Assembly: GCA_946415475.1 (NCBI GenBank)
Contig: CAMKSQ010000006.1
Span: 30,367-94,366 of the forward strand
Direction: 5' to 3'
DNA from: an uncultured Bacteroidales bacterium
Lineage (GTDB): Bacteria; Bacteroidota; Bacteroidia; Bacteroidales; UBA932
Length of the DNA: 64,000 nt
A program made the position numbers and the translations under genes. Below the pieces are notes generated by a model. The model ran no database searches and had not been told where the DNA came from. It saw nothing but the letters and a program-made list of their open reading frames with translations. The first letter of the stretch is position 1, and the number at the start of each line of letters is the position of its first letter. Of the stretch, positions 10,338 through 58,464 are shown piece after piece.

Positions 10338-10471
10338 GAAGGTCCAGGGCGGGGACCTTCGCGCAAAGATTCCTGGGGGAAAGTGTACTGAAGGTCCAGG
10401 GCGTGGACCTTCGCGCAAAGAATCCTGGGGGAAAGTGTACTGAAGGTCCAGGGCGGGGACCTTCGCGCAAG
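10338..10471. repeat. Three tandem 52-bp units with internal hairpin
   Basis: Units begin at 10338, 10390 and 10442. Each opens with GAAGGTCCAGGGCGGGGACC and TTC, forming a hairpin with GAAGGTCC/GGACCTTC arms, followed by CGCGCAAAGATTCCTGGGGG and AAAGTGTACT. The third unit is cut after the hairpin. They fill most of the 310-base gap between the aldehyde dehydrogenase start and the MscS-like stop. The rest of that gap holds the elements at 10472 and 10550. The units are contiguous, so this is not a CRISPR array. Confidence 0.9.
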
Positions 10472-10502
10472 GAGATGCCCGGTCAGGGCCGGGCAGGACG
10501 GG
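10472..10502. repeat. Intergenic palindromic repeat of the GAGATGCCCGG type
   Basis: GAGATGCCCGGTCAGGGCCG and GGCAGGACGG form a hairpin (GCCCGG/CCGGGC). The same core occurs inside the sensor kinase gene at 48419 and, with base changes, at 47100. A truncated copy (GCCGGGCAGGACG) follows at about 10525. Confidence 0.7.
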
Positions 10503-45688: not shown

Positions 45689-46351
45689 ATGAAACGTTTA
45701 GCTATTCTTTTGCTGGCCGTGCTCGTTTCGGTTCCCGCGTTTGCCCAGATGAAAAATGAAAACCTGGGGAAAAAGTACGGCAATTATGAAATCAAACTGA
45801 CCAAAGACAAATGGACCAGTGAGGCAGTTGTGTCGGCTATCTGGGATAATGCTACCAGTGTCTGGGTTACCGCTCCCAAGCTCAAGAACAAGGAAGGTTC
45901 ACTGGTCTTCCTTCCCAATACTGACGTAGATTTTATCCAGGGAGAAGACTATGTCCCGGAGGCGCAGGGACTGGTGGTTGTGGGGAACGGCTACCGATAT
46001 GACAAGGGAGTGGAGAATCCCAAGCAAAAATGGCTCATCCGGGGAGCCGGCGTATTCAGAATAGAAGATGATAAACTTGTCCCGGTAGTGGTCTCGGGCG
46101 ATGCGCTCGATGTGGCCTACCTCTGGGAAGCCCGTTACACTATTTTCAGGGTTATCCCCGGCCATAAGCTCATACTTGGTGCATTCCACCCCAAAGATAA
46201 AGAAGGTTATTCCATCTTTAACTTAGAAGGAGAACGCCTGTACAACGACCTGAAGGATTGGAAGTTCAAGGAAGAACCCAGCCTGTACATCCAGCTGGAA
46301 GACGGCTCCTGGCATCACCTGGACCCCGCCGACGGCAGCATGCTGGACTAG
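45689..46351 (+). CDS. Hypothetical exported protein, 220 aa (paralog of 40400)
   Basis: The start at 45689 (MKRLAILLLAVLVSVPAFA) opens a signal peptide; a TTG six bases upstream is less likely. The mature part reads KNENLGKKYGNYEIKLTKDK, AIWDNATSVWVTAP and ends EDGSWHHLDPADGS. It is collinear with the minus-strand paralog and shares 69 identical bases (46238-46306 with 40445-40513). It ends operon C; a terminator follows at 46408. Confidence 0.75.
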   Translation: MKRLAILLLAVLVSVPAFAQMKNENLGKKYGNYEIKLTKDKWTSEAVVSAIWDNATSVWVTAPKLKNKEGSLVFLPNTDVDFIQGEDYVPEAQGLVVVGNGYRYDKGVENPKQKWLIRGAGVFRIEDDKLVPVVVSGDALDVAYLWEARYTIFRVIPGHKLILGAFHPKDKEGYSIFNLEGERLYNDLKDWKFKEEPSLYIQLEDGSWHHLDPADGSMLD

Positions 46352-46407
46352 CCCGGCCCTATTTTTGCGCTGATCGGTAAAGTATTGATACACAGCAAGA
46401 TACTCAT

Positions 46408-46440
46408 AATCCTCGGCCCCATTTGCGCCGAGGATTTTGC
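46408..46440 (+). terminator. Rho-independent terminator of operon C
   Basis: AATCCTCGG (46408-46416) pairs with CCGAGGATT (46428-46436), followed by TTGC. The stem is 9 bp with an 11-base loop. It lies 57 bases past the stop at 46351. Confidence 0.75.
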
Positions 46441-46520
46441 ATAAGTAACTGATACTCTGCGTATTATTGACCAGCCCGGATTTAGCCATGGGGACGATTA
46501 AAGCACGCGAGATGGCACTA

Positions 46521-46704
46521 GAGAGTGTTCTGATTGGGGTGGGTGTGCTTTAACGGGGTGTGTGAGGAGTGCTTAAAGCACAGGGTGTAGCCTTGGAAGT
46601 GGTTCTGGAAGGGATGGGTGTGCTTTAACGGGGTGTGTGAGGAGTGGCTAAAGCACAGGGTGCAGCCCTGGAAGTGGTTCTGGAAGGGATGGGTGTGCTT
46701 TAAG
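46521..46704. repeat. 75-bp tandem repeat upstream of the sensor kinase gene
   Basis: Full units start at 46541 and 46616 (period 75), and a third begins at 46691 but is cut. Each contains TGTGCTTTAACGGGGTGTGT and later TTAAAGCACA, which are inverted arms (TGTGCTTTAA/TTAAAGCACA). The region 46352-46793 holds these, the terminator at 46408 and the operator at 46723; I see nothing else in it. The 75-base period is a multiple of 3, so all frames stay open across the units. Confidence 0.9.
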
Positions 46705-46722
46705 CAGAGGGGGGAATGTCTT

Positions 46723-46786
46723 GTGGTGGATTCCGCCACGGGGAAACCGATTCGCAAGGTTTTTTCGGGAGGAAATGGTATCTTTG
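46723..46786 (+). promoter_or_regulatory. Promoter with palindromic operator, copy 4, of the sensor kinase gene
   Basis: GTGGTGGATTCCGCCAC (46723-46739) differs at one arm base from copies 1 and 2/3. The -7 box TATCTTTG is at 46779-46786, 39 bases further on, instead of 21. The ATG at 46794 follows the box by 7 bases, so the transcript would be almost leaderless. Confidence 0.7.
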
Positions 46787-46793
46787 TGTCACT

Positions 46794-49655
46794 ATGCGCC
46801 GTCTCGCCGTCATATTGTGGTTGGCCCTGGTTCTGCCGGGTTGGACCCTCTTCGCCCAGAATTTCCCAGCGCCCCGCTTTGTGAACTACAGCGCGGCGGA
46901 CGGGCTGCCGTCCAACACGGTCTATGCCATTACACAGGATGCCGATGGCGTCCTGTGGGTGGGAACCCGGAATGGCCTGGCCAGTTTTGACGGGGTGCGT
47001 TTCAGAAGCTGGAAGGAGTACGGTCGTGTGAACGCTCTGGCCTTGGACACGGGGAACCGCCTATGGGTGGGGACGACGGAGGGGGTCGCTGTGGTGAAGG
47101 AGATGCCCGATCAGGTCGGGCATGACGGAGCGGTCGGGCACGGCACCGTCAGTGCCGGCTCCGACCGGCAATCTTTCGGCGGGCCGGTACGGGCGCTGCA
47201 CACGGACGCGGAGGGCTGCGTCTGGGCCACCGTGGACGATACGCTGCTGCTGAAGTTGTCCTACCAGGACGGCATCCGGGAAGAAGCCCGCTGCCGCTAC
47301 GAGAAGCGGGACTCGGAAGGCGATTACCCCTATTTCCAGATCTACGAGGCCTCCGACGGCAAACTCTGGCTGGCAGGCCGGTTGGTCAACAACCAGTATA
47401 TCACAGACAAAACGGATCCGCACGTCACGCTCCCCCGCTGGGAAGGCATGTTCAATAACGGAAGCTATGCCGAAAGCGCCGGAAAACTCTACTCCTTTGT
47501 AGACCACACCTCCATCCTGTATACTTACCAGGACCTTCAACCCCTCCCCCTGGGCCGCATACCCATTGCCCATGCAAGGCTGCTGACAGACAGCAAAGGC
47601 CGCCTCTGGGCAGCGGGCTCCTACGGCCTGGGCATCGTGGATACCCTCCATCCGGAAAACACGCAGGTGTTCCGCCATCAGGCAGATACCCCCTCCAGCA
47701 TATCCTCCGGTGAACTCTTCTGCCTCTTCGAGGACCGCCAGGGCAACCTCTGGGCGGGCGGCGACAACGGCCTTTCCGTCCTCTGCCCCGCCCTGCAGCA
47801 GGTTCGCACCCTCTCCGAGGACAATGTCACGGCCATCCTGGAGGACAGTCACGGAAAAATCTGGATAGGAAGGGCCGATGACCGTGTCTCCAGCCTCTAC
47901 GAAGACCGCACCGGCACCGTGTACGTGGGCCTGTGGAACAACACCGGCTGGGAGGTCTGGAAGGATGGGCACATGCACAAGGAACGCCTCCACGGCCCTC
48001 TTCCCAAAGAGCAGCGGGAAGCCCAGTACCTGGACGGCGCCAACTGGATTTCGGACTTTTTGGAGGACAGTCAGGGTCGATTCTGGGTAGTGAGCTGGGA
48101 AGGCGTAGGCCTCAACGAATGGGACCGCCAGGCCCGCCGCAGCCTCCCGCCCCATTGGCTCAGCCCCTTCCGCTATCCCACCCCGCAGGTGGATTCCAAC
48201 ATCTACGTGAGCTCCCGCCTGGGCAGCCGCCTCATCGAGGATGCGCAGGGCAACCTGGTGTATGCCACCACCGAGGCCGGCATCAATGTCATCGACAAGG
48301 ATACAGAACTGGTAACCAAATACTTCCGGGGGAATTCAAGCATTCCGGACGACTACGTCACAGACCTTTGCCTCTCCCCGGACGGCAGCGTCTGGGCCGC
48401 CACCCGCAGCGGCCTGTGGAGATGCCCGGTCGGAGCCGGGCATGACGGGGCGGCCGTCGGGGGTAACGCCCCCGTCATTGCCGGCTCCGACCGGCAATCT
48501 CTCCTCCCCGGTATGCTGGTACAATCGGTGGAGGCCGATGAGAAAGGCCGCCTTTGGGCCGGTACGGAGGACGGGCTGTATTTCATTGACACAGACGGCA
48601 GCACGGGCCGGGTGCCCCAAGCGCTGGGCTTCCCCTCGGACATCTACGGGGAGCATGTCTCTTGCCGCTTACGGGACGGTTCCCTGGCCTTTGGCGGGGC
48701 GGCCGGCGCGGTGGCCTTCCATCCGGACAGCCTGCTGGCCGTGTCGGCCCGGGGAAACCTGCCGCTGGAAAAACTGATCCGCCACCGTTACCGCCTGGGC
48801 GACGGCGAATGGACGGACGGACGCTTTACGGGTCTGCCGGACAACCTCCGCCCCGGGCGCTATACCCTCCAGGAGCAAAGCGCCGATCTTTTTGGCCGAT
48901 GGGAGCACGGCACCACCGCCGTCCGCACACTCCGCGTCCCGCCTCCGCTCTGGCTCCGCTGGCCCTTCCTGGTGCTGTACCTGGGCCTGCTCGTGGCCAC
49001 CGCGTGGATTGTCATCCGCCTGCGGGAGCGCCGCCTCCTGGAGAAGGAACTGGACATGCGCAACCGCCTGTTCTCCATCATCTCCCATGACCTGAGAAAC
49101 CCCGTTTCGGGGAACGCCCTGCTCAGCCGCCAGCTCCTGGAGCGCTTCCGGGACCTGAGCCCCGCGCAGCTTCAGGAGGGCCTGGAAGAGCTCGCGCAAT
49201 CGGCCCAAAATACCTCCGCACTGCTGGAGAACCTGCTCCTGTGGTCGCTGAACCAAAAAGGCATGCTGGAGCCGGTAATGCGGGAAGAAAATCTCCTGAG
49301 CCTGGCCAAGGAGGCCGTAGAAAGCGTTCAGGGACAGGCGGTTATCCGGATCGATATTCCCGAGGACCTGACGGTCCGCACCGACCGCAACATGCTCCTC
49401 ACCGTCCTTCGGAACCTCCTGGACAATGCCCTCAAGGCTTCGCCCACTTCTGTCATCCTGAGGAGCGGAGCGACGAAGGATCTCACCCGTACCATCACCA
49501 TCCTGGACAACGGCCCCGGACTCCGGGAAGGCGCCACCGCCTGGGGCCACGGCCTGGGCCTGGTGATTACCCGCGAACTCGTGGACAAACTGGGCGCCAC
49601 CCTCCATATGCAAAACCGCCCCTCAGGGGGCCTTGAAATAACCATCAACCTATGA
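46794..49655 (+). CDS. Propeller-type sensor histidine kinase with in-frame repeat insertions
   Basis: The ATG at 46794 (MRRLAVILWLALVLPGWTLF) opens a signal peptide; the frame upstream is rejected. Residues 25-600 hold beta-propeller blades (GVLWVGTRNGLASFD, GRLWAAGSYGLGIVD, GNLWAGGDNGLSVL, GRLWAGTEDGLYFID). Then come a Y_Y_Y-like domain, a membrane helix near 720-745, HisKA with phospho-acceptor His765 (IISHDLRNP), and HATPase_c (NLLDNALKASP, DNGPGLREGA, GHGLGLVITRELV). Two composite palindromic elements lie in the propeller (103-127 and about 542-570) and one motif in the ATPase domain (about 886-898). Partner regulator is the next gene (overlap 4 bases). Confidence 0.9.
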   Translation: MRRLAVILWLALVLPGWTLFAQNFPAPRFVNYSAADGLPSNTVYAITQDADGVLWVGTRNGLASFDGVRFRSWKEYGRVNALALDTGNRLWVGTTEGVAVVKEMPDQVGHDGAVGHGTVSAGSDRQSFGGPVRALHTDAEGCVWATVDDTLLLKLSYQDGIREEARCRYEKRDSEGDYPYFQIYEASDGKLWLAGRLVNNQYITDKTDPHVTLPRWEGMFNNGSYAESAGKLYSFVDHTSILYTYQDLQPLPLGRIPIAHARLLTDSKGRLWAAGSYGLGIVDTLHPENTQVFRHQADTPSSISSGELFCLFEDRQGNLWAGGDNGLSVLCPALQQVRTLSEDNVTAILEDSHGKIWIGRADDRVSSLYEDRTGTVYVGLWNNTGWEVWKDGHMHKERLHGPLPKEQREAQYLDGANWISDFLEDSQGRFWVVSWEGVGLNEWDRQARRSLPPHWLSPFRYPTPQVDSNIYVSSRLGSRLIEDAQGNLVYATTEAGINVIDKDTELVTKYFRGNSSIPDDYVTDLCLSPDGSVWAATRSGLWRCPVGAGHDGAAVGGNAPVIAGSDRQSLLPGMLVQSVEADEKGRLWAGTEDGLYFIDTDGSTGRVPQALGFPSDIYGEHVSCRLRDGSLAFGGAAGAVAFHPDSLLAVSARGNLPLEKLIRHRYRLGDGEWTDGRFTGLPDNLRPGRYTLQEQSADLFGRWEHGTTAVRTLRVPPPLWLRWPFLVLYLGLLVATAWIVIRLRERRLLEKELDMRNRLFSIISHDLRNPVSGNALLSRQLLERFRDLSPAQLQEGLEELAQSAQNTSALLENLLLWSLNQKGMLEPVMREENLLSLAKEAVESVQGQAVIRIDIPEDLTVRTDRNMLLTVLRNLLDNALKASPTSVILRSGATKDLTRTITILDNGPGLREGATAWGHGLGLVITRELVDKLGATLHMQNRPSGGLEITINL
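47100..47174. repeat. In-frame composite palindromic element in the sensor kinase (1)
   Basis: The 75-base segment starts GAGATGCCCGATCAGGTCGG and ends GACCGGCAATCT. ATGCCCGA/TCGGGCAT and TGCCGG/CCGGCA form two hairpins, and GACGG/CCGTC with AGAT/ATCT give outer symmetry. It encodes EMPDQVGHDGAVG and, after HGTVS, AGSDRQS. Length is a multiple of 3. Confidence 0.8.
48419..48502. repeat. In-frame composite palindromic element in the sensor kinase (2)
   Basis: It starts GAGATGCCCGGTCGGAGCCG and ends GACCGGCAATCTCT. The first half encodes PVGAGHDG in the same frame as GHDG in element 1; the second half encodes VIAGSDRQSL in the same frame as AGSDRQS. The middle is longer, with an extra CCGTCGGGGGTAACGCCCCC hairpin. 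Confidence 0.82.
49449..49487. repeat. In-frame short interspersed motif in the kinase ATPase domain
   Basis: TGTCATCCTGAGGAGCGGAG and CGACGAAGGATCTCACCC encode VILRSGATKDL. The shape GTCATCCTGA, a GAGCGGAGCGACGA core and GGATCTC is that of a known type of small dispersed repeat. It lies between the N-box and the DNGPG motif, where such loops tolerate insertion. Confidence 0.6.
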
Positions 49656-50305
49656 TACACGTCCTTCTCATCGAAGATTCCGCCGTTTTTGTGATGGGGC
49701 TCAAGCTGGCGCTGGGAGCAGAGAAATCCATCGGCCCGATTGACGCCGTCACCACCCCGGGCGCGGCCGTAGCCTACCTTAACGCCCATCCCGAGACCGA
49801 CCTTGCCGTGGTGGACATCACCCTGGAATCCGAAACCGACGGCCTTACGCTGCTGGGTATCATCCGGGCGGCCTTCCCTACCGTGCGCACGCTGGTGCTG
49901 TCCCACTACAAGAACCCGGCCTATATCCTCCGGGCCATCACCTCCGGCGCCAATGCCTATCTGGCCAAAGATTCCGCACCGGAGTCCATCGTACAGGCCA
50001 TTATGGACGTGGCTGAAGGTCGATGTCTCTTCTTTGGCGAGACCATCGACGCAGATAAAATTACGCGAATCTTTGGCGGAGAGGAAAAACTGGTAGCGCG
50101 GAAGCCCCAGGGACTCACGCCCCGCGAGCTGGAGGTCCTGCAACTGACCACTTCCGGCTACAGCAACGCCCAGATAGCCTCGGCGCTGGAAATCTCCCTG
50201 AACACCGTAGACAGCTACAAGGAGCGTATCAAAGGGAAATTCGGCCTGGACAGCATTGTGGAATGCGTCGCCCATGCCGTAGCCAAGGGCATCGTCACGG
50301 TTTAA
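49652..50305 (+). CDS. NarL/FixJ-family response regulator
   Basis: The 217-residue protein has a receiver (LLIEDSAVF with acidic pocket, phospho-acceptor Asp55 in AVVDITLES, a Ser in VLSHYKNPAYI and Lys in AYLAKDSAPES). The C-terminal LuxR helix-turn-helix follows (LTPRELEVLQLTTSGYSNAQ, IASALEISLNTVDSYKERIK). The start codon overlaps the kinase stop. It is the best candidate for the protein that binds the shared GTGGCGGATTCCGCCAC sites, since LuxR-type dimers bind palindromes of this size, but this is inference. Confidence 0.93.
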   Translation: MIHVLLIEDSAVFVMGLKLALGAEKSIGPIDAVTTPGAAVAYLNAHPETDLAVVDITLESETDGLTLLGIIRAAFPTVRTLVLSHYKNPAYILRAITSGANAYLAKDSAPESIVQAIMDVAEGRCLFFGETIDADKITRIFGGEEKLVARKPQGLTPRELEVLQLTTSGYSNAQIASALEISLNTVDSYKERIKGKFGLDSIVECVAHAVAKGIVTV

Positions 50306-51146
50306 TCTGCGCGGGGGTGGAGGTATCCAGGAGCTTGGGCTTGTCTGTGCCATAGCCTATCCAGTAGCCGGAGGCGCCTTGCATCATGTTGTCCAGGACG
50401 TAGCGGGAATTGGGGGTGTTGAGCATGTTGCCGGTCAGCGTCGCCTCAAAATTGTTCCAGTAGTCGTAGGCCTTCCGGTCCATGGTGCACAGCTTGACCC
50501 ACAGGCTGTCTCCCTGGTGGATATTGGTCTGGAAGATGTTGTCCATCAGCCGCTGGGTGCTGTAGAGGAATATTTCCGTATAGCCGTTCAGGGTTTCGTC
50601 CGTAGCCATGGCCAGGGCCGACGGATGGTAGTGCTTGTCCTTGCTTTCGGTCCGGGTAAACACCTTGTAGCAGTTCCCGGAAGCCGGCGGATCCGTGAAA
50701 GCGCAGACCGCCGTTACCATGCTGTCCTTGACCTCCCTTACGAATACCCTGTCGATGGGAACCGGTGCGGGAATGGTGGTAGTGGCCGTGGCCCTGTAAT
50801 CCTTATATTCCACCGTCAGGGTATAAGTCTTCCCCACCTCCCCTTTCATCGTGCCGGACGTGTATATATACGGCGGGAAGTAGTCGGAATCCGCCATACC
50901 TGTCAGCACCTCCGTACGGGTCCCGTCACTGACGGTCACCTTGGCCCATTTGGCCACGTTGTTCACCAGGTCGCGGGGCACGATTTCCTGTTGGTCCAGC
51001 ACGGGAACCGATTCCGACAGCAGCACCACGGGCGCGGCACCGCTCTCGATCCAGCCCTCCACCACCAGGATGGGGCTCTTGGGGGTCTCCACCCTTGAAC
51101 AGGCGAGCAGCAATACAGGCAATATGAGCAAATAACACTTTCTCAT
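50295..51146 (-). CDS. DUF4249 lipoprotein
   Basis: The signal peptide ends LPVLLLAC with lipidation at Cys16. Next come PILVVEGWIESGAAPVVLLS and the beta-sandwich strands of DUF4249, with KTYTLTVEYKDYRATATTTI and RYVLDNMMQGASGYWIGYG. DUF4249 lipoproteins accompany TonB receptors, like the SusD partner of SusC. Its tail overlaps the response regulator by 11 bases (convergent). It starts 2 bases after the receptor stop. Confidence 0.88.
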   Translation of the reverse strand: MRKCYLLILPVLLLACSRVETPKSPILVVEGWIESGAAPVVLLSESVPVLDQQEIVPRDLVNNVAKWAKVTVSDGTRTEVLTGMADSDYFPPYIYTSGTMKGEVGKTYTLTVEYKDYRATATTTIPAPVPIDRVFVREVKDSMVTAVCAFTDPPASGNCYKVFTRTESKDKHYHPSALAMATDETLNGYTEIFLYSTQRLMDNIFQTNIHQGDSLWVKLCTMDRKAYDYWNNFEATLTGNMLNTPNSRYVLDNMMQGASGYWIGYGTDKPKLLDTSTPAQIKP

Positions 51147-51148
51147 CG

Positions 51149-53167
51149 TCAGAAGGTATGGAAAAACGCCAGAGAAGGCAGGAAACGCAGATTCAGGGAG
51201 AAGGGACCAAAGGTATAGGCCGATTTATCCTTGTTCATGTGGATGCCATACCCCAGGGCATTCTTGCTTCCCAGGGCATTGTACAAGGAGAAATTGAGAC
51301 CCGTCTTGCCCTTGGCCGTCCGGCGGAAATACCAGTTCACGGACAGGTCCAGTTTGTAGTAGGTCGGCAGCCGGTTCCCATTATACGGACCGTAGTCGCA
51401 CACCAGGCGGCTGCCCAGCACGTAGAGGGCCTCCGGGCGGGTATAGGGGGTTCCCGTGGCCAGCGCGAAGGTAGCACCCACGTCCACCTTGCCAAAGTCG
51501 TAGGTGGCCACCACGTCCACTTCGTGCAGGCGTTCGTGCTTGCTGGGGTATTCGCCGCCGTCATAATCGCCGTCGAAGGTACGGAGACTGCGGGAGAACG
51601 CGTAACTGATCCAGCCGGTAAACTTGCCCATCGACTTCTGCGCCATCAGGTTCACGCCATAGGCCCGTCCCTTTCCCCTCCGGGTATTGCTTTCCAGCGA
51701 GTACATGCCGTTGAAGATATCCATGATGGAGCCGGTGTACTCCAGCTGGTTGCGCAGGAGCTTGTAATAGACTTCTACCGAGAAATCGACACCCAGCCAT
51801 TTCACATTGTACGCCAGGGAGAAGTTGTGGGCCCACTGCGGCGCCTGGATGTCGCCGGCCATCACCCAGAATTCACAAGGAAGGCCGATATCGGTCATCC
51901 CCAGATTAAACAGGTTCTGCCGCTTGATGGCGTAAGTGAAATCCAGCTTGCCGGCGTCCATGAAGTTGGCGATGAGTTTCACCTCCGGGCTCAGCCCCCA
52001 CCAGCTCCTCTTTTCCGGACTCAGGTACCAGCTGCCGCTCAGGCCGACCTTCCCCTGCAGATAATAGCCCAGGTTGCGGGAGTAATACGCACTCAGGATG
52101 GTTTCAAACGCATTCTGCACGGGCACGGCGCCATTGTTGACCGAATCGTTCTGATGCCCCTCGGTATAAGGATTCTGCGGCTGCACGCGGTAGTACGAGA
52201 AATGCGCCCCGAACTCCCAGTCCTTCCACAGCAGTTCTCCACGATAGCCATAGTCCTGGATATAGGAGTTCATCGTCCCGTAAATATTGAACGCATTGAT
52301 ATGGGGATACAGGCCGAAAGCCGTCCCGTACACGCTTTGTTTGAGGGTTGCCTCCGGGAAGTAATGGTTCCAGTGGACCGCCCCCAGGGCATTGAACCAC
52401 TTAGCCTTGAACTCCTGCACGATGCCTCCCTTTGCGGTGACATCGTCCAGGGAGCCAAAGGCATCGACCCAAATGCGGTCTCTCCGCGTGGGCCGCCACT
52501 GCCAGGTGAGATTGGCGTCCGTGAAGCCGTAAAAAATGGGATAGCCGTAGAATTGAAGCCAACGCCCGTAAAGCAGGTTCACATACGTCCGGCGGGCGCT
52601 CACGATGAGGTTGGAATTGGGACCGGTGGGTATCCGCAGCGTACCCTGCGCATTCAACAGCCCCACGGAGACATCCCCGCCAAAGCGGCGGGCCAGGGTA
52701 TCCTGGATTTGCATGTCGATAATGCCGCCTATCCGCGGCTCCTTCCCGGCCGAGGTATCATACCGCATCCCCGTGAAATGCGGGGTGTTAAAGACGGAGA
52801 ACAGCCCCAGCAGATGGGTAGCGCCGTAGATGGGAATGCCGTGCTGGGAAATCAGGGTATGCGAGTGGTCGCTTCCCTGCATGTACAGGCCGCCCTCTAT
52901 TTCCGTGTTCAGCGACACGCTGGGCAGCAGACGCACAAAGCGGATCGGGTCCGCATTGCCCAGGAAAGAAGGGATGGCGGCGATTTTGCTCACGTTCACT
53001 TCCCCGCTCACGCCACGGCTGTTAATGGCTATGGGCCGCTGCAACTGTTCGGTAATCACCGACTTTTCCAGCGACAGCTGCGCCACCGTGTCACGCTCCT
53101 GCGCCACGGCCAGCGGGCCCAGCAAAACCAGCAAAACCACCAATATGCTATTCCGTAGAGAGCACAT
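51149..53167 (-). CDS. TonB-dependent receptor plug-domain outer-membrane protein
   Basis: The ATG at 53167 (MCSLRNSILVVLLVLLGPLA) is chosen over a TTG at 53173. The product (672 residues) lacks a carboxypeptidase-like N-domain. A plug starts near residue 55 (VSGEVNVSKIAAIPSFLGNA, ADPIRFVRLLPSVSLNTEIE) and a 22-strand-type barrel ends in FHTF, a typical terminal Phe. It overlaps the preceding lipoprotein gene by 20 bases. With the DUF4249 gene it forms an uptake pair for an unknown ligand. Confidence 0.9.
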   Translation of the reverse strand: MCSLRNSILVVLLVLLGPLAVAQERDTVAQLSLEKSVITEQLQRPIAINSRGVSGEVNVSKIAAIPSFLGNADPIRFVRLLPSVSLNTEIEGGLYMQGSDHSHTLISQHGIPIYGATHLLGLFSVFNTPHFTGMRYDTSAGKEPRIGGIIDMQIQDTLARRFGGDVSVGLLNAQGTLRIPTGPNSNLIVSARRTYVNLLYGRWLQFYGYPIFYGFTDANLTWQWRPTRRDRIWVDAFGSLDDVTAKGGIVQEFKAKWFNALGAVHWNHYFPEATLKQSVYGTAFGLYPHINAFNIYGTMNSYIQDYGYRGELLWKDWEFGAHFSYYRVQPQNPYTEGHQNDSVNNGAVPVQNAFETILSAYYSRNLGYYLQGKVGLSGSWYLSPEKRSWWGLSPEVKLIANFMDAGKLDFTYAIKRQNLFNLGMTDIGLPCEFWVMAGDIQAPQWAHNFSLAYNVKWLGVDFSVEVYYKLLRNQLEYTGSIMDIFNGMYSLESNTRRGKGRAYGVNLMAQKSMGKFTGWISYAFSRSLRTFDGDYDGGEYPSKHERLHEVDVVATYDFGKVDVGATFALATGTPYTRPEALYVLGSRLVCDYGPYNGNRLPTYYKLDLSVNWYFRRTAKGKTGLNFSLYNALGSKNALGYGIHMNKDKSAYTFGPFSLNLRFLPSLAFFHTF

Positions 53168-53687
53168 TTTCAATCAGGAAGTCGATGAGCGCCTCAGAGA
53201 TAAGTAATGAATTCAACGCATAGGCCGTCCCGTCGGGGAAACGGAACACCAGACAGGAAAGCCCCCTGTCAAATTCCAGTTTGGCCACGTCCTTGTCCAT
53301 GTCGTACACGTGCAAGTCCGCAGGCGGAGGCAGGATGGTACCTTTGATGGCAATTCCGCCATAAAGCGAGGCCAACACCTCTCCGCTCAACACATAGTAG
53401 CGAACCAGCAGTACCGCCCTACCGTGCCTTTTAAGCTGATAGGTAATTGCTCCATTGTCCGCCCAGTCGGCAGATATGCTGCTGTTTTCCAAAAGGAACT
53501 TTTCCGGCTGCTTCACCACCGTGGAATCCAGGTCCAGCGCCGTGATGAACGCAGAGAAGGACTCGTCCAGGTGCGCTTTTACCAGTTCCTCCTGCGTATA
53601 AGGGTGCTTGGGAACCTCTACCGGCGTCTTCTTACAAGCCACCAGCAAGGCCCCCAGGCAGGCAATACACAGGCACCACTTTCTCAC
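53148..53687 (-). CDS. Hypothetical lipoprotein, 179 aa
   Basis: Signal peptide MRKWCLCIACLGALLVAC (lipidation at Cys18) is followed by KKTPVEVPKHPYTQEEL. The mature part is a mix of helix and beta strands with an FLLENSSISADWADNGAITY segment. No family recognised. Its start overlaps the LolA-like gene stop and its end overlaps the receptor start, so it belongs to this operon and may help receptor biogenesis or act as another surface partner. Confidence 0.75.
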   Translation of the reverse strand: MRKWCLCIACLGALLVACKKTPVEVPKHPYTQEELVKAHLDESFSAFITALDLDSTVVKQPEKFLLENSSISADWADNGAITYQLKRHGRAVLLVRYYVLSGEVLASLYGGIAIKGTILPPPADLHVYDMDKDVAKLEFDRGLSCLVFRFPDGTAYALNSLLISEALIDFLIENVLSTE

Positions 53688-54301
53688 TTGCGAATAATCT
53701 TGACACCGGGGTACTTGGCTATATCGAAGGTGACATCGGCCTCGGTGACGTCAAAGGAAATGTCGCGCATGGTCATGGTCATGCCGGACATGGATGCCTT
53801 GAGACTCAGCGGATAATAGTTCTTCTTGGACACCACCAGGTCCATGGTCTTGGGGTCGTCCTCGTCCTTGTTGCCCCTGGACTTCTTGCACAGGAGATGC
53901 CAGGCGTCGGCGGTTTCCTTCTTCATCGACACGTCGTAGCCGTCGGTGATGCCCATGAACAGTTCCGTGTCGCCGGTGTTGGCCTTTTTATGGCCGGCAG
54001 ATTGGATGGTAAGGGAGTTGTCCTTGGAAACATAGGTCCAGGACGTCTCGCCGTCGCTCCAGGTCACTACCTGGACGCCCATCATCTTCATTTCCACGCG
54101 GAGCTTGCTGCCATACACATAACTGCGGCTGGTGGACGTTCCCAGGATGGGAATTTTGATATCCACCGTCATGGCAATGCCTTCGCTTGCATGGCTGTTC
54201 ATTTCCGCCTCCATGCGGCTGACAATTTCTTCGGGAGTCTGCGCAACGGCAGCCACAACGGCAGCCCAAACGGCCATAAAGGCAAGTACTAACTTCTTCA
54301 T
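53684..54301 (-). CDS. LolA-like outer-membrane lipoprotein carrier protein
   Basis: The start at 54301 (MKKLVLAFMAVWAAVVAAVA) or the ATG two codons upstream opens a signal peptide. The mature 185 residues start TPEEIVSRMEAEMNSHASEG and show the alternating beta-strand pattern of the LolA/LolB half-barrel (VYGSKLRVEMKMMGVQVVTW, NSLTIQSAGHKKANT, PLSLKASMSGMTMTMRDISF). LolA carries lipoproteins through the periplasm; a paralog placed with lipoprotein genes may serve specific cargo. Start and stop overlap the neighbours. Confidence 0.75.
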   Translation of the reverse strand: MKKLVLAFMAVWAAVVAAVAQTPEEIVSRMEAEMNSHASEGIAMTVDIKIPILGTSTSRSYVYGSKLRVEMKMMGVQVVTWSDGETSWTYVSKDNSLTIQSAGHKKANTGDTELFMGITDGYDVSMKKETADAWHLLCKKSRGNKDEDDPKTMDLVVSKKNYYPLSLKASMSGMTMTMRDISFDVTEADVTFDIAKYPGVKIIRK

Positions 54302-55647
54302 TTGCATAACATTATATCCAGAATCATCCGGTCCGTGGCTTTCATGCCGGCACTGCCGATGGTGCCAATGTTGCGGATGGTCTTTTCCACATCGTCCTCA
54401 ATAATGCCGTCCGTGGAGGGGATGCAGGTGCCGCGAAGGGCCAGCACGGCCGATTGCACCGCGCAGGATACGCCGGAGGCCACCTTCATGGCGCAGCCCA
54501 CCTTGGCGCCGTCGCACACCATGCCGGTAATGTTGCCGGCCATGTTCTTGATGGCGGCGCACACCTGCTCGTAGCCGCCGCCTTCCAGGTACACAATGCC
54601 GCAGGCGCTGCCGGTCGATGCCACCACGCACCCGCACAGGGCGCTCAGCTTACCCAGGTAGTGCTTGATATGAATGGCCACCAGGTTGCTCAGGATGAGC
54701 GCGCGGGCAAGTTTTTCATCGTTCACCTTGTATTTGAGCGCATAGGTGATTACGGGCATGCTCACGGTGATGCCCTGGTTGCCGCTGCCGCTGTTGGACA
54801 TGGCGGGAAGGGTGCTGCCGGCCATACGGGCATCCGAGGCTGCGGCGGTCATGCCCATGGCGTAACTCATGAAATCGTCCCCGAACACCTCTTTCTGGTT
54901 TTCGCGGATGGCTTTGCCCACCTGCAGGCCGTAGTTGCCGCGGAGACCTTCCTGGGCCAGGGCCAGGTTGAGCGTACGGTCTTCCAGGATGAAGGCGATA
55001 TCCTCATACGGGGCCTCATGGGCGAAGTCCCAGATTTGCCGGACGGTAAGGTCGTAGGCCTGTTCTTCCTTCGGCGCGGCAGACGAACCTGCGACGCCAA
55101 GGGCGGCGGCGGATTCCGAACTCATCAGGATTTTGTCCGCAAAGCTGGTTTCCACGATGCGGTCGTGGTCGTCCTCGACGACGGCGTATGCATGCGGATC
55201 CACTTCTGCACTGGCCACCGTGTGGTCATCAACCGTAACTGTGGCTTTTACATAGAGCAGGTGCTCGGTATCGGCCACGGAAATGTGCACAAACCCCTTG
55301 GCTACCAGCTCTTTTGCGCGGGCCACCGCCTCCGGCGTGAGGCCTTTGAGCACCTCCAGTCCCAGGCTGGAGTCCCCGCAGACCGCACCCAGGGCGGCAG
55401 CTACGGGCAGGCCCACCATGCCGGTGCCGGGAATACCCACGCCCATACCGTTTTTAAGGATGTTGCCGCTGACGGCCACATCCAGCTTGAAGTCCGACTG
55501 CATGCGCCACGGGCCACAGCCGGGGCAGTTTTCGGAAATAATTTCCGCAGCCTTGGCGACGGCCAAAGCCACGGCAATGGGTTCGGTACACCCCAGGGCA
55601 GGTTTTACCTCCTGCTTGATGAGGCCGATGATTTCCGCTTGCGTCAT
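54298..55647 (-). CDS. L-cysteine desulfidase / UPF0597-family enzyme
   Basis: The 449-residue protein starts MTQAEIIGLIKQEVKPALGC and TEPIAVALA, the hallmark of the UPF0597/L-cysteine desulfidase family. SGNQGITVSMPVITYALKYK and VASTGSACGIVYLEGGGYEQ and GMVCDGAKVGCAMKVASG are kept, with the Cys residues (Cys19 and later ones) proposed to bind an iron-sulfur cluster as in serine dehydratase-like enzymes. It would release sulfide, ammonia and pyruvate from cysteine, in the cytoplasm. The start overlaps the DsbD stop, giving a sulfur/redox neighbourhood. Confidence 0.88.
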   Translation of the reverse strand: MTQAEIIGLIKQEVKPALGCTEPIAVALAVAKAAEIISENCPGCGPWRMQSDFKLDVAVSGNILKNGMGVGIPGTGMVGLPVAAALGAVCGDSSLGLEVLKGLTPEAVARAKELVAKGFVHISVADTEHLLYVKATVTVDDHTVASAEVDPHAYAVVEDDHDRIVETSFADKILMSSESAAALGVAGSSAAPKEEQAYDLTVRQIWDFAHEAPYEDIAFILEDRTLNLALAQEGLRGNYGLQVGKAIRENQKEVFGDDFMSYAMGMTAAASDARMAGSTLPAMSNSGSGNQGITVSMPVITYALKYKVNDEKLARALILSNLVAIHIKHYLGKLSALCGCVVASTGSACGIVYLEGGGYEQVCAAIKNMAGNITGMVCDGAKVGCAMKVASGVSCAVQSAVLALRGTCIPSTDGIIEDDVEKTIRNIGTIGSAGMKATDRMILDIMLCK

Positions 55648-57512
55648 AAGGTCAAGAAGTTCACAAACGCGTCTGTATCCAGGTTATAACCCCGCGGACC
55701 CCGGAGCGTATTCCCCTCCCCGTCCAGCAGGAAATAGTTGGGCTGGGAGTTCACGCCAAAGCGCTCCAGCACCAGGTGGGAGTTCACGCGGCCCACGTCT
55801 TTGAGTACCTTGCCTTTGTCGGTGGTCACCCACTCGCTTTCAGGCAGTTTGGTTTTATCGTCCACGTAAAGGGACACTATCACGTAGTCGCGCTGCAGCA
55901 GTTGCAGCACGCGAGGGTCGCTCCATACACGGGCTTCCATTTCCCGGCAGTTCACGCAGCCGTGGCCGGTAATGTCCACAAAGACCTTTTTCCCCTGTTC
56001 CTTGGCCGCCTTGATACCCTCTTCCAGCTTGTTGTAACCTTTAAGGCCGTGCGGCAGGGACACCAGAGATTGCCGGTCGGGGCCGGCAATGACGGACGTC
56101 CCGTCATACCCGGCTTGACCGGGTATCTCTCTTATCACAAAATCCTGCGTCTCCAACGGCGGCAGATAGCCGCTGAGGGCCTTCAGGGGCGCACCCCACA
56201 TGCCCGGCAGGAGGTAAATGACGAAGGCAAAATCGGCAATAATAAGGGCCAGGCGGCCTACGCCGATGTACTCCAGCGGAGAGTCGTGCTTGAAGCGGAT
56301 TTTGCCCAGCAGGTACAGGCCCAGGAGGGCGAAGCACACAATCCAGATGGCCAGATACACCTCACGGTCCAGCAGGTGCCAATGGTACGTCTGGTCCGCC
56401 GTGCTCAGGAATTTGAGGCCCAGGGCCACTTCGATGAAGCCCAGCACCACCTTTACGCTATTGAGCCAGCCGCCGCTCTTGGGCAGCTTTTTGAGGACCG
56501 ACGGGAAGAACGCCAGCAGGGCGAACGGCAGGGCGAAGGCGATGCTGAAGGCCAGCATGGTCACCATGGGGGTCCAGAACTCGCCCTGGGTACTCTTGAT
56601 AAGGACCGTACCCACGATGGGACCGGTGCAGCTGAAGCTCACCAACACCAGCGTCAGCGCCAGGAAAAATACACCCAGAAGGCCGCCACGGTCGCTTTTT
56701 GCATCGGCCTTGGTGGTCCAGCTGGCCGGCAGGGTGATTTCGAAAGCGCCAAAGAACGATGCCGCAAACAGCATGAAAATCACAAAGAACAGGATGTTCG
56801 GGAGCCAGTGCGTGCTGAGCCAGTTGAAGATATCCGCCGTCACCGCTTCTCCACCCAGGAGCCAGGTAAGACCGATGATGATGGAGATGGGCACCGTATA
56901 AAGCAGGACGATGAAAATGCCATACATGAGGGCCTTGAAGCGACCGCCCTTCTCCTGCTTGATGAAGAAGGACACCGTCATGGGCACCATCGGGAACACG
57001 CAAGGCGTCAGCAGCATCAGGAATCCCCAAAGGATCGCCTCCAGAATCAGGCTCCAAAGGTTGCCAGCCGTGGCTTGACCCTCCTCATCCCGGGCTTGAC
57101 CCGGGATCTCCACCGGCACGGAGAATTCATACTCCTCCGGCATCTGGCAATAATCCCCACTACAAGCACTCCAGGTAACGCTTCCCTCCACCTTCAACTT
57201 CCCGGATCCGGCAAGCTGCAACTCCTGCTTGAGCACATACGTCCCCACTACCACTTGGGCCCCCTTATACTCCGAGGGCGTAAATTCCTCCACCGGCTTC
57301 CCTTCCAGGAAAACCCGGTCCGTGGTATTCACCTCCAGTTCCGTCCCCACATGCGGGTCACTCATGGGGTGCACATAATAATTTTTTCCGATTTGTCCCG
57401 TTACAACCAACTGGTAGCGGTCTCCTTCCGTATGATTGACTGTAGCCTTCCACACCACGCTGGGATTCAGCTGGAGCAGAAGGGCGATGAGGGTCGAAAA
57501 AAGCAATGACAT
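55644..57512 (-). CDS. dsbD: DsbD-like thiol:disulfide interchange protein with in-frame repeat insertions
   Basis: The 622-residue protein has a signal peptide and an N-terminal DsbD-alpha-like domain (residues 20-125, with CSGDYCQMPEEYEFSVPVEI). An eight-helix transmembrane domain follows (150-420; TPCVFPMVPMTVSFFIKQEK and SFSCTGPIVGTVLIKSTQGE carry the membrane Cys pair). The periplasmic thioredoxin-like domain has CVNC (DITGHGCVNCREME). It passes electrons from cytoplasmic thioredoxin to periplasmic proteins. Repeat-derived peptides lie in two linkers: EIPGQARDEE at about 134-144 and IREIPGQAGYDGTSVIAGPD at about 459-480. The start has MSLLFSTLIALLLQLNPS. Confidence 0.92.
   Translation of the reverse strand: MSLLFSTLIALLLQLNPSVVWKATVNHTEGDRYQLVVTGQIGKNYYVHPMSDPHVGTELEVNTTDRVFLEGKPVEEFTPSEYKGAQVVVGTYVLKQELQLAGSGKLKVEGSVTWSACSGDYCQMPEEYEFSVPVEIPGQARDEEGQATAGNLWSLILEAILWGFLMLLTPCVFPMVPMTVSFFIKQEKGGRFKALMYGIFIVLLYTVPISIIIGLTWLLGGEAVTADIFNWLSTHWLPNILFFVIFMLFAASFFGAFEITLPASWTTKADAKSDRGGLLGVFFLALTLVLVSFSCTGPIVGTVLIKSTQGEFWTPMVTMLAFSIAFALPFALLAFFPSVLKKLPKSGGWLNSVKVVLGFIEVALGLKFLSTADQTYHWHLLDREVYLAIWIVCFALLGLYLLGKIRFKHDSPLEYIGVGRLALIIADFAFVIYLLPGMWGAPLKALSGYLPPLETQDFVIREIPGQAGYDGTSVIAGPDRQSLVSLPHGLKGYNKLEEGIKAAKEQGKKVFVDITGHGCVNCREMEARVWSDPRVLQLLQRDYVIVSLYVDDKTKLPESEWVTTDKGKVLKDVGRVNSHLVLERFGVNSQPNYFLLDGEGNTLRGPRGYNLDTDAFVNFLTL
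56065..56130. repeat. In-frame composite palindromic element in dsbD
   Basis: The 66-base segment is a large palindrome. Plus-strand AGAGATTGCCGGTCGGGGCC and GGCAATGACGGACG are followed by a mirrored CCGTCATACCCGG, CTTGACCGGG and TATCTCT. The minus strand encodes EIPGQAGYDG and then VIAGPDRQSL, the same peptides and frame as in the sensor kinase (VIAGSDRQSL). It lies in the linker before the thioredoxin domain. Confidence 0.85.
57082..57111. repeat. In-frame single palindromic element in dsbD
   Basis: CTCATCCCGGGCTTGACCCG and GGATCTCC; arms ATCCCGGG/CCCGGGAT. The minus strand reads EIPGQARDEE, matching the EIPGQAGYDG half of the element at 56065 in the same frame. It sits in the linker between the N-domain and the first membrane helix. 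Confidence 0.82.
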
Positions 57513-57558
57513 GTCAAATTCCTTTTAAGCCCTGCAAGTTACTACAAATTCCGATTTT

Positions 57559-58464
57559 TTACAAGTCCGGTTCCACCGGAGCCCGCTGGGTAAGATAGAT
57601 TCCCACCATCGCGATAGCCAGCCCGATCCACTGCAAGCCGGTGGCGGTTTCCTCCCCCACCAGGAAGGCCAGCACCGCCGTCACCAGCGGCACCACGGCC
57701 AGGAAAACGCTGGTTTTGGCAACGCCCAGCACCTTGATGGCATAGGCCCAGGAAGTAAAAGCCGTCGCTGAGCAGAACAGCGCCAGCGACAACGTGGGAT
57801 ACAGGACATCCCAGCTCAGATACAGGCCCGCATCAAAGTTCCGGAGGCCCTTGGTAAACAGCAACGGAAGAAAATACACGGTGCCCAGCAGAAACTGGTA
57901 CATCACAATGACGGACGGGGCATAATGGGCCGATAAGGACTTGGTGAAGCCAATCTGGCTCACCTCCGCAACCACGGCGATAAACAGGATACCCACGCCC
58001 ACCCAGAACAGGGCGCTGGTCTGGGAACGGGTGAACGATACCAACCAAAGGCCCGCCAGGGTAATGAAAACCCCCACGATATTGATCGGACCAAACTTTT
58101 CCTTGAACATGACGATGCCCGACACCATAGCCAGGATGGGGTTGGTGGCAATGACCAGCGACGTAATGGTAGGAGACTCCGTGAATTCCAGGCCGTAGGT
58201 CTCTGCCACAAAGTAAATGAAGGGCATGCACAGGGCTAGGAACACGAACTTGAACAGGTCCCGGCGGCTTTGGATGCGCATGGGAACGCCCGTGACTTTG
58301 TTCAGGAGCCACAATAAAACCCCGGCCAGAAAAGTTCTCACCGGGACAAAAAACTCTACGGGAATATTCAACGCCAGCAAACGGTCCGCCCATATATAGG
58401 ACATGGCCCACAGGCCCACCGTGAGCATGGCCGCCGCATACGCACGTACAGGAAGTTTTCTCAT
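57559..58464 (-). CDS. EamA/DMT-family transporter
   Basis: The 301-residue protein has ten predicted membrane helices as two EamA repeats. The first ends around SLVIATNPILAMVSGIVMFK with EKFGPINIVGVFITLAGLWL. The second has LGVAKTSVFLAVVPLVTAVL and AFLVGEETATGLQWIGLAIA. EamA proteins export amino acids, purines or other metabolites; the substrate is unknown. It stands alone between the DsbD gene (upstream in transcription terms, on the same strand) and the nitroreductase gene. Confidence 0.93.
   Translation of the reverse strand: MRKLPVRAYAAAMLTVGLWAMSYIWADRLLALNIPVEFFVPVRTFLAGVLLWLLNKVTGVPMRIQSRRDLFKFVFLALCMPFIYFVAETYGLEFTESPTITSLVIATNPILAMVSGIVMFKEKFGPINIVGVFITLAGLWLVSFTRSQTSALFWVGVGILFIAVVAEVSQIGFTKSLSAHYAPSVIVMYQFLLGTVYFLPLLFTKGLRNFDAGLYLSWDVLYPTLSLALFCSATAFTSWAYAIKVLGVAKTSVFLAVVPLVTAVLAFLVGEETATGLQWIGLAIAMVGIYLTQRAPVEPDL

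What the first reader, a model, noticed from the sequence alone, without database searches (positions are those of the whole stretch)
47100..57111. Palindromic repeat elements inserted in frame inside protein genes, giving a recurring peptide
Composite palindromes at 47100-47174 and 48419-48502 (sensor kinase) and 56065-56130 (dsbD) share the layout GAGAT..GGGCATGACGG..CCGTCATTGCCGGC..GACCGGCAATCT. A single half lies at 57082-57111 and an intergenic relative at 10472-10502. The coding copies are read in the same frame in two unrelated genes, producing GHDG or GYDG, then VIAGSDRQSL or VIAGPDRQSL, and EIPGQA. Lengths of 75 and 66 bases keep the frame. This resembles the Rickettsia palindromic elements (RPE) and REP/BIME structures, but the window is from a Bacteroidota. 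The copies sit in linkers or propeller loops, consistent with tolerance of insertions. Insertion as the cause is inferred; homologs without the segment are not visible here.
Basis: partly seen in the sequence, partly recalled or inferred. Interest (0 to 1): 0.8.

Follow-up and report, generated by a model that had tools for sequence, protein, structure and literature searches.

The report
Palindromic repeats inserted in frame in genes
This gut Bacteroidales genome carries dozens of short palindromic DNA repeats, many of them in frame inside ordinary protein genes (including DNA repair genes) where they encode a recurring peptide; they resemble elements known from Rickettsia, and they probably spread as mobile hairpins and were likely kept where the added peptide is harmless.

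Summary
The window holds three inverted pairs and one single copy of a 28-29 nt hairpin (CGTCAT-stem/loop-ATCTC) in frame in a sensor kinase and dsbD, plus an intergenic copy; a second, tag-sharing repeat in the kinase (49452-49484) was missed. Genome-wide there are 97 pattern hits against 1 in the reversed control. After dropping 8 chance rows, 28 of 66 elements lie in genes, in 23 ORFs (UvrA twice, UvrD, MutL, DnaG, DnaX, IspG, a PBP1C and others). Frame use is biased beyond stop avoidance (21 of 27; 14.2 expected; P about 0.005). Orthologs show that the segments are additions: 87 of 99 DsbD orthologs have no detectable copy, and in two cases a sister species has a different repeat family at the same linker. 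Tag, stem and dimer type match the described CGTC REP superfamily; the behaviour matches Rickettsia RPE-4/6/7. The tail (CTC, not CCA) and the many tandem pairs differ. None of four IS200-like genes in the genome is flanked by the units; one is flanked by another palindrome whose arrays are joined to intergenic units. Verdict: a new, well-supported lineage of a known kind; how it moves is unproven.

The parts
47100..47174 (+). Inverted (tag-to-tag) pair: 17-base-core unit plus 18-base-core unit, 75 nt, in frame in the sensor kinase (EMPDQVGHDGAVGHGTVSAGSDRQS)
   Evidence: no such pair in 3 of 3 same-genus orthologs that cover the site, one of which has a second-family-like segment there
48419..48502 (+). 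Inverted pair of two 18-base-core units, 84 nt, in frame in the sensor kinase (RCPVGAGHDG...VIAGSDRQS)
   Evidence: of 4 covering orthologs 3 lack the pair and G005 has it shortened
49452..49484 (+). Second-family repeat with the same GTCAT/ATCTC ends, in frame in the kinase ATPase domain (VILRSGATKDL)
   Evidence: shared with G005, absent in 4 other orthologs
56065..56130 (-). Inverted pair, 66 nt, in frame in dsbD between the membrane and thioredoxin domains (EIPGQAGYDGTSVIAGPDRQS)
   Evidence: residues 462-482 overlap the least confident stretch of the predicted model (441-478)
57082..57111 (-). Single unit (tag variant CCTC) in frame in dsbD before the first membrane helix (EIPGQARDE)
   Evidence: overlaps a model stretch below pLDDT 50 (139-149)
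10472..10502 (-). Intergenic unit 5 nt after a 52-nt-period palindromic array
10338..10470 (+). Tandem array, period 52, 2.6 copies, of a GGTCCA...TGGACC palindrome; other copies lie beside a RAYT-like gene on contig C57
46716..49655 (+). Host gene: Reg_prop sensor histidine kinase, 979 aa
55644..57512 (-). Host gene: dsbD, 622 aa

Best explanation
These are copies of a short hairpin repeat of the CGTC REP type that sit in frame inside protein genes; they were likely spread as mobile single-stranded hairpins, and selection probably kept the copies whose peptide lands harmlessly in a linker. Shown: the repeat family, its hairpin with compensatory stem changes, the in-frame positions, the frame bias, absence of the segments from most DsbD orthologs examined, and a different tag-sharing repeat at the same linker in a sister species (two sites). 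Inferred: that an enzyme acting on the CGTC/ATCTC ends of a single-stranded hairpin mobilises them in trans (an IS200-like Y1/HUH enzyme is the best candidate by analogy with REP/RAYT), that head-to-head dimers are the unit that enters genes, and that the recurring peptide reflects a filter on what proteins tolerate rather than a peptide function. Some insertions are older than species splits, since close relatives share them.
For: Copy number and structure. Location: of 66 elements kept (8 of 74 rows dropped as chance), 25 have coding sequence on both sides and 3 lie at gene 3' ends. Frame: 17-base-core units in GAGAT sense use phase 0 in 17 of 19; 18-base-core units in CGTC sense use phase 2 in 11 of 14; 21 of 27 elements use the canonical frame, 14.2 expected by choice among stop-free frames, P about 0.005; of 11 pairs in genes, all 8 made of a 17- and an 18-base-core unit with tags facing have the 17 first in the gene's sense. 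Insertion: of 99 DsbD orthologs 12 carry a repeat of either family, 11 of them at the same two linkers; in the linkers 12 of 12 GAGAT-sense units are phase 0 and 7 of 8 CGTC-sense units phase 2. DnaG and MutL segments are shared with G005 (MutL also G019) and absent from the other orthologs aligned. UvrA has 17 extra residues against T. maritima UvrA 3PIH at its first copy. Turnover: G005 has second-family sequence where G000 has a pair, in DsbD linker 1 and kinase site 1. Orthologous DsbD units differ on both stem sides: outermost pair C-G, G-C or T-A at linker 2. Linker: the two DsbD copies each overlap a stretch of the model below pLDDT 50.
Against: No transposase is flanked by the units: 0 of 4 Y1 genes in this genome. 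Having a Y1 match is only weakly linked to carrying 10 or more units (23 of 28 against 143 of 221 genomes, counted by hand; Fisher P 0.088), and 5 unit-rich genomes show none, though these are incomplete assemblies. No clean empty site or target duplication was resolved: linkers are divergent, and some copies replaced rather than merely lengthened sequence (UvrA second copy +3 residues; kinase third copy +3 to +5). In-gene status rests on a codon-usage model trained on this window. The canonical frames were named, and the null assumes two canonical frames per element; the five true 17-base-core units in CGTC sense show no preference (2, 1 and 2 in phases 0, 1, 2), and six of 27 elements use another frame. 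The unit scan requires a stem, so pairing is partly built in; one search is the independent test. Tandem pairs equal inverted pairs (10 each).
Confidence: 0.83

Rival explanations
1. The segments are exchanged by recombination between repeat copies (gene conversion at shared GTCAT/ATCTC ends) rather than by new transposition, so linkers act as exchange cassettes.
For: Different families at the same linker in sister species; orthologous units differ on both stem sides yet stay paired.
Against: First entry into a gene still needs insertion. The shared ends are only 5-6 nt, short for homologous recombination (general knowledge). Not tested with strains.
Confidence: 0.25
2. The recurring peptide (EMPxQxGHDG...VIAGxDRQSL) has a cellular function, such as a binding or targeting signal, and was selected in many proteins.
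For: Strong frame bias and consistent orientation of heterodimers.
Against: Hosts are unrelated, cytoplasmic and membrane. Six of 27 elements use other frames. Orthologs lack, shorten or swap the segment. Two families give different peptides at one site.
Confidence: 0.06
3. The copies in genes act as RNA or DNA hairpins, for example slowing translation, attenuating transcription or binding gyrase, and the peptide is a by-product.
For: Stable hairpins and compensatory changes.
Against: Frame and orientation bias point to an effect at protein level; hosts are of many kinds; no Rfam match at E up to 0.5 in 46000-58000.
Confidence: 0.08
4. Chance low-complexity GC-rich coding sequence that looks palindromic.
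For: GC-rich sequence; 8 of 74 rows of the scan were judged chance matches.
Against: 97 hits against 1 control; 74 of 84 against 28.5 expected pairs; absence from orthologs.
Confidence: 0.01

Closest known systems
CGTC-tagged REP superfamily (Di Nocera et al. 2013, PMC3733652; read: abstract, sections on CGTC families, dimers, genome distribution and discussion, and passages)
   Same: CGTC tag (CCTC variants too), 8-bp stem starting with AT pairs, 5-nt loop in 17-base-core units, head-to-head heterodimers, copies inside genes including DNA repair genes, no transposase flanked by units; Bacteroidetes listed among host phyla.
   Different: Tail CTC rather than CCA; loop 6 in most 18-base-core units; head-to-tail tandems, negligible in that survey, are as common as head-to-head pairs here (10 and 10), none of them with coding sequence on both sides.
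Rickettsia palindromic elements RPE-4, RPE-6, RPE-7 (PMC3767692; read: the section on these elements, and passages)
   Same: ATGAC motif, in-frame location in genes (there PBP1C, excinuclease subunit C, DNA polymerase III alpha; here PBP1C, UvrA, UvrD, DnaX, DnaG), different groups at the same site in orthologs, exposed or linker positions.
   Different: Gut Bacteroidales rather than intracellular alphaproteobacteria; sequence kinship to RPE not tested; orthologs without any insertion are found here, whereas that paper reports insertions in all Rickettsia orthologs it aligned.
GTAG REP / RAYT system (TnpA-REP, IS200/IS605-like; PMC6006769, passages only)
   Same: Tagged hairpins, dimers, high copy, proposed single-strand mobilisation.
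   Different: Tag is CGTC not GTAG; no Y1 gene flanked by the units in this genome.

Membership tests
CGTC REP superfamily | unpaired CGTC (or TGTC/CCTC) at one end | tested here: met
   84 of 97 hits of a pattern that does not include the tag are followed by ATGAC with up to 1 mismatch; CCTC variants occur
CGTC REP superfamily | 8-9 bp stem whose first two pairs are AT | tested here: met
   AT + 6 bp in the common cores (the AT was part of the scan); outermost core pair tested independently, 74 of 84
CGTC REP superfamily | loop of 4-5 | tested here: inconclusive
   5 in 17-base-core units (60 of 96 rows), 6 in most 18-base-core units (31 of 96) unless a weak inner pair forms
CGTC REP superfamily | tail mostly CCA | tested here: not met
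   the copies of the finding have CTC or, once, CTT; both search patterns required the CTC side, so CCA-tailed relatives were not sought; the source says 'most', so this is not absolute
CGTC REP superfamily | head-to-head dimers predominate, head-to-tail negligible | tested here: inconclusive
   10 head-to-head, 10 head-to-tail, 2 tail-to-tail
CGTC REP superfamily | no transposase gene flanked by units | tested here: met
   0 of 4 Y1 genes in this genome; of 44 Y1 matches in 16 genomes 32 loci were scanned and 2 have real units nearby, one of them on both sides
Rickettsia RPE-4/6/7 | ATGAC-bearing palindromes in frame in genes, different groups at one site in orthologs | tested here: met
Rickettsia RPE-4/6/7 | sequence descent from Rickettsia elements | not tested
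   no Rickettsia sequence was compared
GTAG REP with RAYT | GTAG tag and units flanking a RAYT gene | tested here: not met
   tag CGTC

The most novel reading that the evidence does not exclude
Different hairpin repeats bounded by the same GTCAT/ATCTC ends swap in and out of fixed linker sites of essential proteins across species, a tag-bounded linker-exchange system, and it is driven in trans by a RAYT-like enzyme whose own palindromic arrays are physically joined to the CGTC units. That would give CGTC REPs, said to lack a dedicated transposase, their first candidate machinery.
Probability: 0.15. Interest if true: 0.78.

Novelty: new member of a known kind. Interest (0 to 1): 0.5.

Why it matters
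Protein-coding palindromes are best known from Rickettsia and Wolbachia. A gut lineage with many species, genomes with 0 to 76 strict copies and many orthologs per gene makes their origin, turnover and filtering by reading frame testable by comparison. It also bears on what moves CGTC REPs, which the 2013 survey left open, and echoes that survey's remark about DNA replication and repair genes: 5 of the 23 host ORFs here are DnaG, DnaX, UvrA, UvrD and MutL (no genome baseline was measured).

Tried and rejected
RAYT as the mover: PF01797 in this genome (4 genes), in 18 other unit-rich genomes and across 249 genomes of the family. No flanking units at home; association with unit number weak (P 0.088). 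Of 44 Y1 matches, 32 loci were scanned (30 returned there, plus L033 and L034): L243 (genome G097) has units on both sides of the Y1 gene and L253 on one side; hits in L234 and L240 were judged chance. At the density of unit-rich genomes I do not find this striking, but I computed no expectation. Rfam: no match in 46000-58000. The second-family copy at 49452 as a hairpin: it does not fold better than shuffles (z +1.08), so it is grouped with the others by its ends, position and copy number, not by a shown structure.

Intergenic relatives: 11 of 38 non-genic elements and 0 of 28 genic ones lie 5 nt from a 52-nt GGTCCA array (Fisher P 0.0016; the 81 matches were reduced by hand to 58 palindromes, since each is often matched on both strands). 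I treat these as a different arrangement, not as the source of the gene copies. The share of repair genes is reported without a baseline.

Rows dropped: of 74 elements, 8 were dropped by eye as chance because the core does not have the family's CCGG/CCGA-type stem (window 39556 and 51902, L072 2801, L073 31, L083 912 and 1174, L104 1059, which is native UvrA sequence, and L117 3349). The frame test also left out L091. Only places hit by the pattern were fetched, so all counts for this genome are lower bounds.

Papers: the searches (55, 68 and 69 aimed at Bacteroidales, Bacteroidetes and Cryptobacteroides) listed no paper whose title or abstract reports in-frame palindromes in Bacteroidales; apart from the three papers cited, the hits were seen as listings only, subscription papers are not held, and the supplementary list of intragenic copies in PMC3733652 was not read, so it may hold Bacteroidetes cases.
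Full report
Setting. The window is part of a 2.25 Mb, 65-contig genome (contig C6). The closest named DsbD relative is a Bacteroidales assembly (UBA3764, 87%); most of the 80 loci kept (of 579 confirmed) are rumen and gut Bacteroidales, and four at 59-65% are labelled Candidatus Cryptobacteroides, so the organism is a gut Bacteroidales close to that group.

The unit. Read from its tag, the repeat is CGTCAT - 17 or 18 bases that close into a stem - ATCTC. In the window it occurs as three inverted pairs with tags facing each other (47100, 48419, 56065), one single copy (57082) and one intergenic copy (10472). A genome search found 97 hits against 1 in the reversed control. A tag-and-stem scan of the window and 60 fetched stretches found 96 units against 5 and 3 in controls. 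Because that scan demands a stem, pairing was tested separately on hits at positions outside the search pattern: 74 of 84 outermost core pairs are Watson-Crick with four pair types, where 28.5 are expected, and no shuffle exceeded 44.

Genes and frames. With a codon-usage model trained on the window, 74 elements were sorted; 8 chance rows were dropped by eye. Of 66, 25 have coding sequence on both sides, 3 lie at gene 3' ends and 38 are outside or unclear. The 28 fall in 23 ORFs. Pfam and NCBIfam hits name 21 of them: IspG, a LolC/E-like permease, two MFS transporters, a GH88, a ketoacyl synthase (two elements), DnaG, DnaX, a PBP1C-like protein, DapF, YfhO, UvrD, UvrA (two), carbamate kinase, MutL, an RsmE-like methyltransferase, an MBOAT, urocanase, a PG_1098-like protein (two), the kinase (two of this family) and DsbD (two); two ORFs had no hit. 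Frame use is skewed: 17 of 19 17-base-core units in GAGAT sense read (E/Q)-(I/M/T)-(P/A)-x-Q-x-x-x-(D/E), and 11 of 14 18-base-core units in CGTC sense read V-(I/M/S)-x-x-x-D-R-x-S; the five true 17-base-core units in CGTC sense show no preference. Among stop-free frames in both orientations, 21 of 27 elements use the canonical one against 14.2 expected, P about 0.005; the canonical frames were named. All 8 tag-facing heterodimers of a 17 and an 18 core have the 17 first in the gene's sense. The simplest reading is a filter on the peptide.

Two arrangements. All 10 tag-to-tag pairs have coding sequence on both sides; none of 10 tandem pairs does (three of these have it on one side only) (Fisher P 1.1e-5 on those counts). 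Of two tail-to-tail pairs, one is in a gene and one is unclear. Many intergenic units are tandem arrays whose tag reads ATGAGG, and 11 of 38 non-genic elements sit exactly 5 nt from a 52-nt-period GGTCCA palindrome array, against 0 of 28 in genes.

Insertion and turnover. Kinase site 1 has no such pair in 3 of 3 covering orthologs; at site 2, 3 of 4 lack the pair and G005 has it shortened; the second-family copy is shared with G005 and absent in 4. Of 99 DsbD loci, 87 have no detectable repeat, 11 carry one or more of either family at the two linkers and one has a unit elsewhere; some are near-duplicates (L142/L143, L050/L149). Within linkers, 12 of 12 GAGAT-sense units and 7 of 8 CGTC-sense units keep the canonical frame. 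At linker 1, G005, L129 and L146 carry a second-family repeat (VILSEAKNL) instead of the pair, and at kinase site 1 G005 has a second-family-like segment. DnaG and MutL copies sit in variable linkers; they are shared with G005 (MutL also with G019) and absent from the other orthologs aligned. UvrA gains 17 residues against 3PIH at its first copy and 3 at its second. Orthologous DsbD units differ on both stem sides at the outermost pair (stems were required for detection). In a predicted DsbD model (40 sequences, mean pLDDT 72.9, pTM 0.40) the copies (residues about 135-143 and 462-482) overlap stretches below pLDDT 50 (139-149, 441-478), the second of which starts some 20 residues before the copy; two other such stretches (273-276, 344-357) hold no copy.

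Second family. GTCAT(C/T)CTGAG...GAAG(A/G)ATCT gives 21 matches, 19 distinct places, with none in the reversed control, and has the same ends as the first. Four places are internal to genes by the same model. Its window copy does not fold better than shuffles.

Spread. A strict pattern hits 90 of 249 genomes of the family, from 0 to 76 copies and patchy within genera, and 91 of 295 of the order, often with other cores between the same ends. Single hits there include chance sequences.

Movement. Four IS200-like Y1 genes exist here and none has units nearby. Of 28 genomes with 10 or more units, 23 have a Y1 match, against 143 of 221 others (P 0.088). One Y1 gene, on contig C57 and weakly similar to the REP-associated transposase model (48.6 bits, cut-off 80), is preceded by two GGTCCA palindromes and has three more about 0.6 kb beyond its end. 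Since GGTCCA arrays are joined to intergenic CGTC units, this is a lead to the machinery, not evidence of it.

Comparison. Di Nocera et al. 2013 (PMC3733652, parts read) describe CGTC repeats with this tag, stem and dimer type, intragenic copies, many of them in repair genes, presence in Bacteroidetes, and no dedicated transposase. The R. japonica paper (PMC3767692) describes ATGAC-bearing RPE-4/6/7 with different groups at the same gene site. The present case is a new lineage of that kind, with a different tail, abundant intergenic tandems, orthologs without insertions, and a measured frame and orientation bias.

Noticed in passing
window 10338-10470; contigs C57, C33, C20, C44 and others: A 52-nt-period palindromic tandem repeat (GGTCCA N5 TGGACCTTCGCG; 58 palindromes in 28 clusters) that directly precedes a RAYT-like gene on contig C57 and is joined at a fixed 5-nt spacing to 11 intergenic CGTC elements.
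   Followed up: partly
window 49452-49484: Second-family repeat (VILRSGATKDL) lies inside the kinase ATPase domain where an ortholog reads VVLQARGKQ.
   Followed up: partly
L104 921-3788: UvrA carries two separate single units, echoing uvrA and uvrB cases described in PMC3733652.
   Followed up: partly
L243 (genome G097): A Y1 transposase gene with CGTC units within about 1 kb on both sides, the only such case among the 32 Y1 loci scanned.
   Followed up: no
L084, DnaG: The inserted segment contains a triplicated GHDG-type stretch (VGHDGTQVGHDGTQVGHDG), suggesting internal tandem duplication after insertion.
   Followed up: no
window 14885-36424: Several direct repeats of about 100-300 nt, 70-81% alike, at spacings of 1.5-25 kb, possibly paralogous gene arrays.
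   Followed up: no
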